Shown piece by piece: positions 1,955 through 9,884 of a stretch of 64,000 nucleotides of DNA. The notes beneath the pieces are model-generated. The model ran no database searches. It saw only the letters and a list, made by a program, of their open reading frames with translations, and was not told where the DNA came from. The position numbers were made by a program, and so were the translations under genes. The DNA comes from Chloroflexaceae bacterium (GTDB lineage Bacteria > Chloroflexota > Chloroflexia > Chloroflexales > Chloroflexaceae). Every line of letters begins with the position of its first letter. The stretch's first letter is position 1. Where the stretch lies: positions 124,001 through 188,000 of the forward strand of contig JANWYD010000002.1 in assembly GCA_025057155.1 (NCBI GenBank). Reading direction: 5' to 3'.

Positions 1955-2081
1955 GAGAAAGAACGGCGTCTTGACGGCCAATGCCCTGCGCGGATGTTTT
2001 GACAGGATCGGCGGGTAGCTTCACAACGCGATGTGGACGAAGCCGACCGTTAGCCGACTAAAAGAAGAAAGACGCATCGTG

Positions 2082-2753
2082 ATGCGACCAACCCAGCTCG
2101 ACCCCGCTTATATAAACCGCCGTGTGATTCTCCCCTACGGTCTGCAGGTAGAGGAGGTTGAGAAGGCGGTCGCCGAAACATATCGGCTCTTTCACGGATT
2201 AAACGATTTCCTTCAAAACAGCGGTTTCCGTCGGCTAGAGGAATTGATCCTCGGCAACTCGCTGTCGGGCATAATCTCGGAATTCCTCGTCAAGAATATC
2301 GCGCGGGCATCTGATAAACTCGAGGTGAACATGAAAGTCGGAGGACATCCCGATCTTCTTCCAAAAGGTTATTACTCATCGAATCTCGTATTGAAAGGAG
2401 CCGAGGGGATCGAAATCAAATCGTCAATTCAACGGGGAGGTTGGCAAGGTCATAATCCAGAAGAGTGCTGGCTGATGGTGTTTCGCTATGCAATCGGTGA
2501 ACAAGCCGATGGAGAGTCTCTCCCCCTGACATTCATCGAGATCCTCTGTGCCAGACTCGAGCTTTCAGACTGGTCGTTTTCAGGCCGAAAGGGGACATCC
2601 CGCAGAACACCCACGGCGTCGATAACTACGTCTGGAGTTGAGAAACTCAGGCGCAATTTCCTCTACCGTCTTCCCAATGTGGGTGTTGGACCCCCACAGA
2701 CATATTCTGGCAGAGCCGTAAATAACAGGCTCGATGTCATAGTATCACCTTAA
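2082..2753 (+). CDS. Probable type II restriction endonuclease (PD-(D/E)XK type)
   Basis: The product has 223 residues when started at the ATG at 2082, which follows an AAGAAAG site; the in-frame ATG at 2031 is an alternative. The best signature is GGHPD (P90-D91) followed 19 residues later by E111-I-K113, the spacing expected of a PD-(D/E)XK nuclease core, with a possible extra acidic residue in SEFL (E67). The length fits type II enzymes. Its 3' end overlaps the stop codon of a DNA methyltransferase on the other strand, so the pair should be a restriction-modification system in which this protein cuts unmethylated host-specific sites. The recognition sequence cannot be read from the sequence. 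Local composition is less GC-rich than flanking genes, consistent with transfer. Confidence 0.7.
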   Translation: MRPTQLDPAYINRRVILPYGLQVEEVEKAVAETYRLFHGLNDFLQNSGFRRLEELILGNSLSGIISEFLVKNIARASDKLEVNMKVGGHPDLLPKGYYSSNLVLKGAEGIEIKSSIQRGGWQGHNPEECWLMVFRYAIGEQADGESLPLTFIEILCARLELSDWSFSGRKGTSRRTPTASITTSGVEKLRRNFLYRLPNVGVGPPQTYSGRAVNNRLDVIVSP

Positions 2754-4030
2754 TCGAACAGTGTTGGCTGGACGCTCTCCGGTTCGGTTGGCTCTTCCAT
2801 ACGGGTTCCGGGATCGCCGTTTGAAACGATTGCCGCCAGTTTGGGAATGGACTCCTCTGCGATAGCAAAGAAGTTCGGATCACTTTCTATTCCGATGCTT
2901 GCATATCCAACAGCGCACGCAGCAGCGATGGTTGATCCTCCTCCCATAAAGGTGTCAAGGACCACGCCCTCACCCAGTGGAAGGGCAGCGCGCACGATCT
3001 GGCGCATAAACGCTTGCGGTTTGAGGGAGGGGTGGGGAGCAATTTCGCGTTCAACGGCGCGGGTGGGAGAGCTTTTGATGACATCACAAAACGGTTGATC
3101 GTCAGAGACCCTACGAAGTCCTCCCGTCTTCCACTTTCGCAGGTTGTCTTGAACACGACCCTCGCAGGGTTTTCGGAAGAGGCCCCAGGGTTCCCAGCAA
3201 GACCGGGGCATAACTGTGACATCTTTAAACTCGTCGTGCGCGTTTTTAGGACGATCGCCCCCACGGAGCGTTTGAACTAGACGGATAATCTCGCCGCGCT
3301 TTTCGAATCCGGCTTCAATCAGTGCTATGTAGACATGTTGCGAAAGGAGCGGATTCGTGGCGATGAAAACGTGTCCGCCTGGTACGAGGATTCGTAGAGC
3401 GCGTTGGCCCCAATCCCGGAAGTATTCGGTAAGTTGCAGCTTTTCTTCCTTGCTGAGAACGGTGAACCTGGGCAGAGGCTGGCGAATGCTTCCACCGATT
3501 GCGGGTGGGATCCGCCAGACCCCGCCGCGCCCGTTCCGAAGTTTTGCTTGCTCTTTGGGGGTGTACTCTTTCAAGCCATAGGGGGGATCTGTGACGATAG
3601 CATGAACGCTATTCGGTTCACGACGTTCCATCCACTCAAAACAATCCCCCTGAACAAGTTCGTATTGAGCTTTACCAGGTTGGTAGACTTCCCGGGTTTC
3701 AGCAACAATTGCAGGGACGGTAGCGCGATCCTCTCTATAGGCTTCTGAGCGAAAAGCTTTCCTTAGGAGCGCTGTAGCTTCGACGGGATGTTCCCTTAGG
3801 ATCTCTTGAACCTCTCCTGAAAGGTAACCCGCAAGGATCAGTAGCGGCCCAGGATCTGTCCCGCAGATTTCAGCAAGCAGCAGGACGGTTGCTCGTGCTG
3901 GACGCGCCTTGCCTGCTTCAAGGCGAGAAATGTACCCCTTAGAGACCTTTAATCGTTTTGCGATATCATCTTGCGTCAATCCGCGCGCAAGACGGACATC
4001 CCTCAAGTGCTGCCCGAAAAGGAGCATCAT
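2750..4030 (-). CDS. HTH-fused DNA methyltransferase of a restriction-modification system
   Basis: The product has 426 residues. Residues 5-62 form an XRE/Cro-type helix-turn-helix (GLTQDDIAKRLKVSKGYISRLE). The methyltransferase part begins near residue 122. Motif IV DPPYG (148-152) precedes motif I DTFMGGGST (359-367) and IESD (381-384), which is the beta-class order; DPPY favours N6-adenine but N4-cytosine is not excluded. It should protect the sites cut by the neighbouring nuclease. The fused HTH makes it a likely repressor of its own promoter: palindromes at 4073-4094 cover the -10 and spacer. The double ATG start has GAGGG upstream. The stop codons of this gene and of the nuclease share the bases TTAA. 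Confidence 0.85.
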   Translation of the reverse strand: MMLLFGQHLRDVRLARGLTQDDIAKRLKVSKGYISRLEAGKARPARATVLLLAEICGTDPGPLLILAGYLSGEVQEILREHPVEATALLRKAFRSEAYREDRATVPAIVAETREVYQPGKAQYELVQGDCFEWMERREPNSVHAIVTDPPYGLKEYTPKEQAKLRNGRGGVWRIPPAIGGSIRQPLPRFTVLSKEEKLQLTEYFRDWGQRALRILVPGGHVFIATNPLLSQHVYIALIEAGFEKRGEIIRLVQTLRGGDRPKNAHDEFKDVTVMPRSCWEPWGLFRKPCEGRVQDNLRKWKTGGLRRVSDDQPFCDVIKSSPTRAVEREIAPHPSLKPQAFMRQIVRAALPLGEGVVLDTFMGGGSTIAAACAVGYASIGIESDPNFFAIAEESIPKLAAIVSNGDPGTRMEEPTEPESVQPTLFD

Positions 4031-4072
4031 CTAAACCCTCTTATTAAGATGGTCTTTTTGGGCTTACGATGG

Positions 4073-4094
4073 ATAGTCTACTATGGTTTACCAT
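4073..4094. promoter_or_regulatory. Tandem palindromic operator before the methyltransferase
   Basis: Two perfect 12-bp palindromes share two bases: ATAGTCTACTAT (4073-4084) and ATGGTTTACCAT (4083-4094). They lie 43-64 bp upstream of the methyltransferase start, over its predicted -10 element and spacer. This arrangement is typical of operators for HTH controller proteins, and the likely ligand is the HTH domain of the methyltransferase itself. Binding is inferred. Confidence 0.7.
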
Positions 4095-4103
4095 TTTAGT
4101 CAA
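4075..4103 (-). promoter_or_regulatory. Predicted methyltransferase promoter
   Basis: On the minus strand TTGACT (4098-4103), a 17-bp spacer and TAGACT (4075-4080) form a fair sigma70-type promoter directed at the HTH-methyltransferase gene. The tandem palindromes overlap it. Confidence 0.55.
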
Positions 4104-4267
4104 CAGCGTTTTGAAACGCATCAGGAGAGCCTGGAAAGCCCAGCTTCCTTCGAGCGCTGGCTTTGGCAACGCCAGCGCAAAGCGTGAGCGCGGCCTGCCC
4201 TCATACATCTGACAGCTGGTTGGACGAGGTGGGGACGCCAAGTTTCCCTGCACTGGCATGGACAGTA

Positions 4268-9213: not shown

Positions 9214-9350
9214 AACCCAATGAATGGCAATTTGAGCCGAATAAAATGGTGATAATAATCAAATTGTAAAGAAGGAGGCATACCTGTAGAGGTATAGAGG
9301 CAAAGCCCAGACCGTCAAGGCGATGTGCAACGCGCCTTGCCATTCCGCTA

Positions 9351-9425
9351 CACCTCCACACCTCCACACCTCCACACCTCCACACCTCCACACCTCCACA
9401 CCTCCACACCTCCACACCTCCACAC
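9351..9425 (+). repeat. 8-bp tandem repeat (CACCTCCA)n
   Basis: About nine perfect copies of CACCTCCA lie in 75 bp, inside the predicted 5' leader of the DUF2089 gene. Flanking sequences at about 9291-9335 and 9443-9490 resemble one another (AGAGGC followed by AGACCGTCAAG, then GCGCGCC), so the array lies between imperfect direct repeats. The array shows short open frames in several phases; these are not genes. A related sequence occurs at 17618-17704. Confidence 0.85.
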
Positions 9426-9521
9426 GACCCGTCGGCAGAACCGTGGAGGTGCAGAGGCCAGACCGTCAAGCTCGTTTGAAGCGCGCCTACGGATTTCTCT
9501 CGGCTGGAACAGGAGCAAGCG

Positions 9522-9884
9522 ATGCACCGTCTTATCACGCGTGATCCGGTAAGCGGCGGCGAACTGATCGTCACGCGCCTGGAGTGCCCGCAGAGCGGGA
9601 TCGTCATCGAGGGGCAGTTCGGCCTGGGGTGGATCGGCCGCCTCAGTCCGGAACAACTCGATTTCGTCGAGCGCATGGTCAAGAATCGCGGCAACATCCA
9701 GAAGCTCGCCAGCGAGCTGGACATCGCCTACAACACTGCCCGCGCCCGCCTCGACGAGATCGTCGCCGCCCTGGGCGGCGCGCCGGAAAGCGATGGGCGC
9801 GCCGATCGTCGCCAGATCCTCGACCGCCTCGCCGCCCGCGAGATCAGCGTCGAGGAGGCGATGAAGCTGTTGAAGGGCGCGTAG
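9522..9884 (+). CDS. DUF2089 family protein
   Basis: The product has 120 residues. AGGAG (9511-9515) lies 6 bases before the ATG. The first 30 residues hold a zinc-ribbon-like segment reduced to a single cysteine (LECPQSG); residues 40-85 form a helix-turn-helix-like region (LSPEQLDFVERMVKNRGNIQ, then ASELDIAYNTARARLDEI), and the C-terminal 25 residues (ILDRLAAREISVEEAMKLLK) resemble a SHOCT-like helical hairpin. This matches the DUF2089 architecture, commonly next to envelope-stress genes of the YvlB/DUF4097 type. It is probably a regulator or adaptor. It leads a co-directional cluster with the two following genes. Confidence 0.85.
   Translation: MHRLITRDPVSGGELIVTRLECPQSGIVIEGQFGLGWIGRLSPEQLDFVERMVKNRGNIQKLASELDIAYNTARARLDEIVAALGGAPESDGRADRRQILDRLAAREISVEEAMKLLKGA

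What the first reader, a model, noticed from the sequence alone, without database searches (positions are those of the whole stretch)
4073..4103. Self-regulated restriction-modification system: HTH-fused methyltransferase with tandem palindromic operator over its promoter
The sequence shows an XRE-type HTH (residues 5-62) fused to a beta-class methyltransferase, and upstream two perfect 12-bp palindromes sharing two bases, lying across TTGACT-17-TAGACT. In many type II systems a separate controller (C) protein binds such boxes; M.SsoII and M.EcoRII use an N-terminal HTH. A fused XRE domain in a DPPY methyltransferase with a ready-made operator suggests an unusual controller-plus-methylase single-protein timer.
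Basis: partly seen in the sequence, partly recalled or inferred. Interest (0 to 1): 0.7.

Follow-up and report, generated by a model that had tools for sequence, protein, structure and literature searches.

The report
Methyltransferase that controls its own gene
A bacterial restriction-modification system whose protective DNA-marking enzyme carries a built-in DNA-binding switch that probably sits on its own promoter; the relatives examined with a different front domain carry a different promoter site, and those with neither domain lack both sites.

Summary
The gene at 2750-4030 (-) is a beta-class N6/N4 DNA methyltransferase with an N-terminal XRE helix-turn-helix; C.AhdI is its closest solved structure by sequence. 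Its unreported partner is a convergent restriction endonuclease at 2082-2753 (+): PD...ExK is invariant in 19 of 19 aligned homologues, and all 50 listed structural re-alignment rows are restriction enzymes. The two 5+2+5 palindromes are real and rare, but absent in 3 of 3 orthologues. What is conserved is an overlapping 19-bp inverted repeat, GTTGACT-N5-rGTHAAC, on the -35 box; it occurs once per genome in 4 of 4 genomes, always at this promoter. In 71 family loci examined the promoter element tracks the N-terminal domain: XRE, 4 of 4 have this repeat (motif derived from them); a different, winged-helix-like domain, 25 of 25 have exact GACGTC-NN-GACGTC (14 outside the discovery set); neither domain, 0 of 42 have either motif. 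So the methyltransferase most likely represses its own gene, a known mechanism (EcoRII, SsoII, Ecl18kI). New here: an amino-methyltransferase with a C-protein-like XRE domain, convergent gene order, and regulatory domains with matching promoter elements. No binding or expression was tested.

The parts
2750..4030 (-). methyltransferase gene (426 aa): XRE HTH fused to beta-class N6/N4 amino-methyltransferase
   Evidence: Pfam; PADLOC MTase_II E 5e-115; best sequence-based solved-structure hits CcrM and, for the HTH, C.AhdI; orthologues 72-80% identical
3845..4018 (-). XRE helix-turn-helix domain, residues 5-62
   Evidence: Pfam HTH_31 E 5.5e-16; Foldseek C.AhdI 1y7y, 62 columns, rmsd 1.2, 31% identity
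2852..3607 (-). methyltransferase domain, residues 142-393, DPPY motif at 148-151 before the FxGxG motif at 361-365 (beta order)
   Evidence: Pfam N6_N4_Mtase E 2.1e-16; alignment of 13 sequences
4086..4104 (-). inferred operator: 19-bp inverted repeat GTTGACT-N5-GGTAAAC over the -35 box and the first part of the spacer
   Evidence: conserved in 4 of 4 XRE loci while the flanks vary; once per genome in 4 of 4 genomes
4098..4103 (-). -35 box TTGACT
   Evidence: identical in 4 of 4 loci
4075..4080 (-). -10 box TAGACT, 17-nt spacing
   Evidence: TATATT, TATATT, TATGCT in the orthologues
   Evidence: not conserved in 3 of 3 orthologues
   Evidence: not conserved in 3 of 3 orthologues
4036..4041 (-). 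Shine-Dalgarno-like AGAGGG five bases before the ATG at 4030; the three orthologues instead have an in-frame ATG 7 nt after the -10 box
   Evidence: sequence read by eye and promoter comparison
2082..2753 (+). restriction endonuclease gene (223 aa), convergent, its last four bases overlapping the end of the methyltransferase gene
   Evidence: convergent homologue in 53 of 71 family loci; PD91...E111xK113 invariant in 19 of 19; PADLOC REase_II E 2.6e-7 over residues 22-96; model pLDDT 81.8; all 50 rows of pdb_via are restriction endonucleases, NaeI Z 9.4
2049..2055 (+). GTTAGCC, the end of the DNA similarity shared with L006 and L007 on the endonuclease side
   Evidence: blastn boundaries

Best explanation
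A type II restriction-modification pair in which the methyltransferase is its own transcriptional regulator. Shown by sequence: an XRE domain is fused to the methyltransferase; the methyltransferase promoter carries a 19-bp inverted repeat on its -35 box that is conserved in the four XRE-type systems found and is unique in each of their genomes; in the family loci examined the promoter element changes or is absent when the N-terminal domain changes or is absent. Inferred: a dimer of the XRE domains binds the repeat, excludes RNA polymerase and represses the methyltransferase gene once enough enzyme has accumulated. Inferred more weakly: because the endonuclease gene is convergent, early unrestrained methyltransferase transcription may hold the endonuclease down (antisense or collision), and autorepression then releases it, giving protection before attack on entry into a new host.
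For: XRE and methyltransferase domains; HTH closest to C.AhdI by sequence and matched to it by Foldseek. Right arm of the repeat 81% pairwise identical across the four loci, against 27% in the rest of the spacer, 43% in the centre and 36% in the 60 nt upstream. All 5 invariant spacer columns fall in the 7 arm columns (P 0.003, uncorrected and with related sequences). One exact site per genome in 4 of 4 genomes, 0 control matches. Partition of 71 loci: XRE 4/4 own motif (by construction) and 0/4 GACGTC pair; winged-helix-like 25/25 exact GACGTC-NN-GACGTC and 0/25 XRE repeat; neither domain 0/42 either. 11 of the 25 were the discovery set; 14 of 14 others agree. Exact GACGTC pairs in the first 50 loci: 23 observed, 0.05 expected. 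XRE systems are one clade in the methyltransferase and endonuclease trees. No second XRE-like match near any of the four systems. The mechanism exists in other systems (PMC3874152 section 17, PMC12707154 section 11, read).
Against: Only four XRE-type loci were found and the XRE motif was derived from those four, so there is no independent XRE test set. The left arm is also the -35 box and would be conserved anyway. The repeat is imperfect: 5 or 6 of 7 arm pairs, and in the window three other stretches of the same 200 nt reach 6 of 7. Domain class and motif are both inherited along the tree, so the 25 and 42 loci are not independent events. For the winged-helix class the GACGTC pair could be the system's own recognition site (methylation-dependent control) instead of an operator, since its aligned endonucleases are only 29-37% identical to the window's. 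The HTH also resembles ordinary XRE repressors such as DdrO. No binding, repression or activity data. The window's methyltransferase has T where the P of motif I (position 360) is kept in the other 12 of 13 aligned, so it may be weak or dead.
Confidence: 0.75

Rival explanations
1. The operator is the pair of 5+2+5 palindromes, two dimers binding side by side over the -35/-10 region.
For: The pair is rare (0.06 expected; 0.07 expected) and lies exactly on the promoter. The second palindrome contains GTAGACT, close to the GTTGACT arm of the conserved site (read by eye), so a window-specific second site is possible.
Against: Absent in 3 of 3 orthologues with 72-80% identical protein and identical HTH residues V29 to E38, whereas the overlapping repeat persists.
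Confidence: 0.12
2. The conserved promoter element is the recognition site of the restriction-modification system itself, and promoter methylation controls expression, as in CfrBI or AhdI; the HTH has another role.
For: All eight half sites in the four loci fit GTNNAC (read by eye), and the winged-helix class carries two GACGTC (a six-base palindrome). Control by promoter methylation exists (PMC12707154, passage, AhdI in section 11; CfrBI seen only as a reference title).
Against: The element tracks the N-terminal domain rather than the methyltransferase domain; the closest relatives without the domain, L027 and L036, lack the XRE motif. The whole 19-bp element occurs once per genome, which is not how a recognition site behaves.
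Confidence: 0.12
3. The XRE domain is mainly a DNA-targeting or dimerisation aid for methylation, and the conserved spacer bases are ordinary promoter features.
For: XRE domains occur in many contexts; the left arm coincides with the -35 box; binding is unproven.
Against: Spacer conservation is confined to the mirrored arm; the site is unique per genome; motif and domain co-vary.
Confidence: 0.1

Closest known systems
Dual-function methyltransferase repressors: M.EcoRII, M.SsoII, M.Ecl18kI, also MspI and ScrFI (PMC3874152 section 17 read, MspI and ScrFI from its reference titles; PMC12707154 section 11 read)
   Same: methyltransferase with an N-terminal HTH and an operator overlapping its own promoter; expected to repress its own gene
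   Different: those are cytosine-C5 enzymes (recalled); this is a beta-class DPPY amino-methyltransferase with an XRE domain, and the endonuclease gene is convergent, not divergent as described for Ecl18kI
C-protein-controlled systems: AhdI, Esp1396I, PvuII, Csp231I (PMC3115060 and PMC4041747, passages)
   Same: XRE HTH close to C.AhdI; inverted repeat containing GACT; A/T-rich N5 between the arms as in C.Csp231I (CTAAG-N5-CTTAG)
   Different: no separate C gene found, one conserved operator rather than two, GACT-N5-rGTH instead of GACT-N3-AGTC, expected target the methyltransferase gene
C-endonuclease fusions such as NsoJS138I (PMC3850674, passages)
   Same: a controller domain fused to a restriction-modification enzyme
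   Different: there the fused enzyme is the endonuclease; here it is the methyltransferase

Membership tests
Type II restriction-modification system | methyltransferase and endonuclease genes side by side, conserved as a pair | tested here: met
   convergent endonuclease homologue in 53 of 71 family loci (41 of 50, 9 of 12, 3 of 9)
Type II restriction-modification system | endonuclease with a nuclease fold and catalytic residues | tested here: met
   PD91...E111xK113 in 19 of 19; PADLOC REase_II E 2.6e-7; all 50 pdb_via rows are restriction endonucleases, best NaeI Z 9.4, rmsd 3.7, 144 aligned. Foldseek itself is weak: best E 0.007 (EcoRV), with unrelated flavin enzymes from rank 9
Type II restriction-modification system | both enzymes active on the same recognition site | not testable with these tools
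   needs biochemistry or methylome data
Dual-function methyltransferase repressor | DNA-binding HTH at the N-terminus of the methyltransferase | tested here: met
Dual-function methyltransferase repressor | operator overlapping its own promoter | tested here: inconclusive
   by sequence conservation only: 19-bp repeat on the -35 box in 4 of 4 loci; binding not shown
Dual-function methyltransferase repressor | repression of its own gene shown | not testable with these tools
   no expression or binding data
SsoII/EcoRII-like subfamily | cytosine-C5 methyltransferase domain | tested here: not met
   Pfam N6_N4_Mtase with DPPY; that the known members are C5 enzymes is recalled
Ecl18kI-type promoter competition | divergent genes with overlapping promoters | tested here: not met
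   genes are convergent
C-protein-controlled system | separate small controller gene | tested here: not met
   tblastn with this XRE domain at E 0.1 finds only the fused copy in the first 8 kb of the window and in L005-L007; a very different controller would be missed
C-protein-controlled system | two operators of the form GACT-N3-AGTC | tested here: not met
   one conserved repeat with N5 spacing; usual form of C-boxes from PMC3115060 passages, where C.Csp231I is given as an exception with N5

The most novel reading that the evidence does not exclude
A family of convergent type II restriction-modification systems in which the methyltransferase acquires interchangeable N-terminal DNA-binding domains (a C-protein-like XRE domain once, an undescribed winged-helix-like domain in another lineage), each arriving with its own matching operator on the methyltransferase promoter. 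Because the two genes converge, self-repression of the methyltransferase doubles as the delayed release of the endonuclease: a one-protein timer without a C gene.
Probability: 0.35. Interest if true: 0.65.

Novelty: new variant of a known kind. Interest (0 to 1): 0.5.

Why it matters
Restriction-modification systems must make the methyltransferase before the endonuclease when they enter a new cell. This family offers a natural experiment: related enzymes with an XRE regulator, with a different N-terminal domain, and with neither, the promoter site changing accordingly. It makes the question whether a methyltransferase can itself be the timer directly testable by swapping domain and operator in a laboratory strain. 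The GACGTC-NN-GACGTC element with its N-terminal domain unknown to Pfam (25 of 25 loci) was not in the finding and may be the larger result.

Tried and rejected
Palindromes as the conserved operator: rejected, 0 of 3 orthologues.

More XRE-type relatives: three found, no more. Genome contigs with the single protein gave those 3 (finds close relatives only). Viral contigs with A2 gave 3 whose matches begin at residue 99 or 121 (only L027 was examined), with A1 and A3 none. Plasmids and phages: 51 and 104 records matched, 0 covering 80% of the query (2 and 1 records were fetched). Genome samples: 400 of the window's phylum (up to 4 candidates scored per genome, list cut), 158 of its class, 392 of the phylum of L007's genome, 2 of that of L005, and with the endonuclease only 57 of that of L006 and 294 of that of L007; beyond the genomes of the window and of L005-L007 no listed strong match reached the XRE domain. 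Samples overlap.

Shared operator for the endonuclease: a window search with up to 2 mismatches found no copy near its start; reading its upstream DNA in four loci showed no shared promoter (by eye).

Empty insertion site in sister genomes: inconclusive. The neighbour protein is 92-94% identical in two relatives, but apart from short matches their DNA on the other side does not match the window's.

Name for the winged-helix-like domain: no Pfam match above its cut-off in 4 of 4 proteins scanned (one sub-threshold DUF2161 hit, E 0.021). 'Winged-helix-like' is my reading of the sequence; no structure was predicted for it. Pfam/NCBIfam name for the endonuclease: none. Structure of the full methyltransferase: poor model (pLDDT 59.6); only the HTH and core matches were used. 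In one search the endonuclease query was translated one base out of frame; redone. In one search three orthologue scans were empty because alignment rows overwrote locus names; redone. In one search the L006 slice is 3 nt short, so its distance prints 42 instead of 45.

Literature: 9 searches (67 was on integrons, 77 on C.AhdI) listed no XRE-amino-methyltransferase fusion with an operator in titles or abstracts shown; PMC2632904 (catalogue of C-protein sites) is not held, so its motif classes were not compared.

Full report
What is there. On the - strand, 2750-4030 encodes a 426-residue protein with an XRE helix-turn-helix at residues 5-62 and an N6/N4 amino-methyltransferase domain at 142-393 (PADLOC MTase_II E 5e-115). 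The DPPY motif precedes the FxGxG motif, the beta order. By sequence the methyltransferase part is nearest CcrM and the HTH nearest the controller protein C.AhdI; DdrO and other XRE repressors follow. The predicted model is poor overall (pLDDT 59.6) but its HTH matches C.AhdI over 62 columns at 1.2 A. On the + strand, ending in the last bases of the methyltransferase gene, 2082-2753 encodes a 223-residue protein without Pfam or NCBIfam match but with a PADLOC REase_II match (E 2.6e-7). Its aligned relatives share PD91...E111xK113 in 19 of 19. Its model (pLDDT 81.8) gives only restriction endonucleases in the 50 listed rows of the structural re-alignment (NaeI Z 9.4, SwaI 7.4, EcoRV 6.6); Foldseek alone is weak (best E 0.007, EcoRV, with unrelated enzymes from rank 9). 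So this is a convergent type II restriction-modification pair.

Observation. The palindromes exist at 4073-4084 and 4083-4094 and are improbable (0.06 expected; 0.07 expected for a pair at this spacing). They are 5+2+5 repeats with an unpaired centre. They lie over TTGACT-17-TAGACT.

Conservation. Three orthologous pairs were found, in genomes titled Nitrospinae (L005), Desulfobacterota (L006) and Candidatus Brocadiia (L007), 72-80% identical in the methyltransferase and 82-83% over 202 residues of the endonuclease. L006 is decaying: its methyltransferase frame is shifted near residue 101 and its endonuclease has an internal stop. None of the three carries either palindrome. All four loci carry GTTGACT-N5-rGTHAAC, then a -10 box at 17 nt. 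Mean pairwise identity is 100% in the left arm, 81% in the right arm, 43% in the centre, 27% in the rest of the spacer, 72% in the -10 box and 36% in the 60 nt upstream. The left arm contains the -35 box; the right arm has no promoter reason to be conserved. Between the window and L005 the DNA similarity starts exactly at this element. The element occurs once in each of the four genomes (5.1, 3.7, 3.8 and 2.3 Mb), only here, with no match to the reversed control pattern.

The domain and the promoter element go together. I classified family loci by what precedes the methyltransferase domain (tblastn with XRE and winged-helix probes) and scanned up to 650 nt upstream. First set, 50 loci including the window (L001-L004, L028-L032 and L039-L044 left out as duplicates, weak non-family hits or flanking DNA): XRE 4, of which 4 have the XRE repeat (by construction) and 0 the GACGTC pair; a different, winged-helix-like domain (APGRVRD...SSVRSYLRLN) 23, of which 23 have exact GACGTC-NN-GACGTC and 0 the XRE repeat; neither 23, of which 0 have either motif. 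I had seen the GACGTC pair in 11 loci first; the other 12 are independent. Second set, 12 new loci: winged-helix-like 2 of 2 with the exact pair, neither domain 0 of 10 with either motif (one, L065, had only 284 nt to scan). Third set, the 9 remaining strong but mostly fragmentary matches: neither domain in 9 of 9, either motif 0 of 9. In all 4 of 4, 25 of 25 and 0 of 42. 'Neither' means not detected by these probes. Further plasmid and phage matches were not fetched. Chance expectation of the exact pair over the first 50 loci is 0.05 against 23 found. In 14 of the 23 a TTGAC lies just before the pair, so that it fills the promoter spacer; for six of the rest the strand printed is unsure. An endonuclease homologue lies convergent in 41 of 50, 9 of 12 and 3 of 9 loci.

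Descent. Trees of 50 methyltransferase and 36 endonuclease rows put the XRE systems in one clade (support 100/97 and 98/97), next to L027 and L036, which lack the domain. The tool warns of long branches, and roots are midpoints, so a single gain of the XRE domain on a domain-less enzyme is the simpler reading, not shown; a remnant of an XRE first helix in L036 (by eye) would instead suggest loss there. Because domain and motif are inherited together, the counts are not independent events.

Mechanism. Most likely the XRE domains of two methyltransferase molecules bind the 19-bp repeat and block RNA polymerase, so the enzyme limits its own synthesis. This is inference from sequence. The genes converge and overlap at their ends, and the consensus scan found no terminator-like site at the junction (2 elsewhere, 2.7 expected), so methyltransferase transcription may run antisense into the endonuclease gene; autorepression would then free the endonuclease later. 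That step is speculative. In the three orthologues an in-frame ATG follows the -10 box by 7 nt with a 15-codon extension, suggesting leaderless mRNA; the window lacks that ATG and has a Shine-Dalgarno-like AGAGGG instead.

Known or new. Methyltransferases that repress their own gene through an N-terminal HTH are established (PMC3874152 section 17; PMC12707154 section 11, read). C proteins fused to endonucleases are known (PMC3850674, passages). C-boxes are usually GACTtatAGTC in two operators (PMC3115060, passages). Here the class of enzyme, the XRE domain, the single N5 repeat and the convergent order differ. My nine literature searches did not list this combination, but the main catalogue of C-protein sites was not held. 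I rate it a new variant of a known kind.

Limits. Four XRE loci, no independent XRE test set, no experiment. The window's methyltransferase has T at position 360 where the other 12 of 13 aligned have P in motif I, and the endonuclease's last ~20 residues differ from its orthologues, so activity in this strain is uncertain. For the winged-helix class the GACGTC pair may be the recognition site rather than an operator.

Noticed in passing
L008-L015, L017-L019, L021-L026, L033, L034, L037, L038, L045, L046, L066, L084, upstream of the methyltransferase gene: 25 of 25 relatives with a winged-helix-like N-terminal domain carry exact GACGTC-NN-GACGTC upstream of the gene; the domain has no Pfam match above cut-off in 4 of 4 scanned.
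   Followed up: yes
L006:1-480 and 2434-2600; window 2049-2055: In L006 the pair looks like an integron gene cassette: attC-like stretches (GCCTAAC...GTTAGCC, single-strand DNA fold z -3.84) are seen by eye on both sides, and the shared DNA of window, L006 and L007 ends at GTTAGCC on the endonuclease side. No integrase or attC model was searched; none is obvious in the window.
   Followed up: partly
L005:3956-4000, L006:431-475, L007:3956-4000: An in-frame ATG lies exactly 7 nt after the -10 box, with a 15-codon extension (MKRTK..., MQRSK...), suggesting leaderless mRNA; absent in the window.
   Followed up: partly
window 2951-2953 (codon 360, - strand): Motif I reads DTF instead of DPF, which the other 12 of 13 aligned relatives keep; possible loss of activity.
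   Followed up: no
window 2690-2753: The endonuclease's last ~20 residues differ from its orthologues, which by eye resemble another frame of the same DNA; beyond the last conserved residue.
   Followed up: no
L027:2941-4500: Viral-contig relative (66% identical methyltransferase) without an N-terminal domain; no homologue of this endonuclease found beside it, and another open frame follows on the same strand.
   Followed up: no
L036:2950-3579: By eye: the methyltransferase start resembles only the first helix of an XRE domain (FGDRLRKEIEA), a transposase-like frame lies just upstream, and a CAGTGT-N5-ACACTG inverted repeat precedes the gene.
   Followed up: no
window 9259-9660: Repetitive stretch seen as repeated CGGVEVWR in the ORF list.
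   Followed up: no
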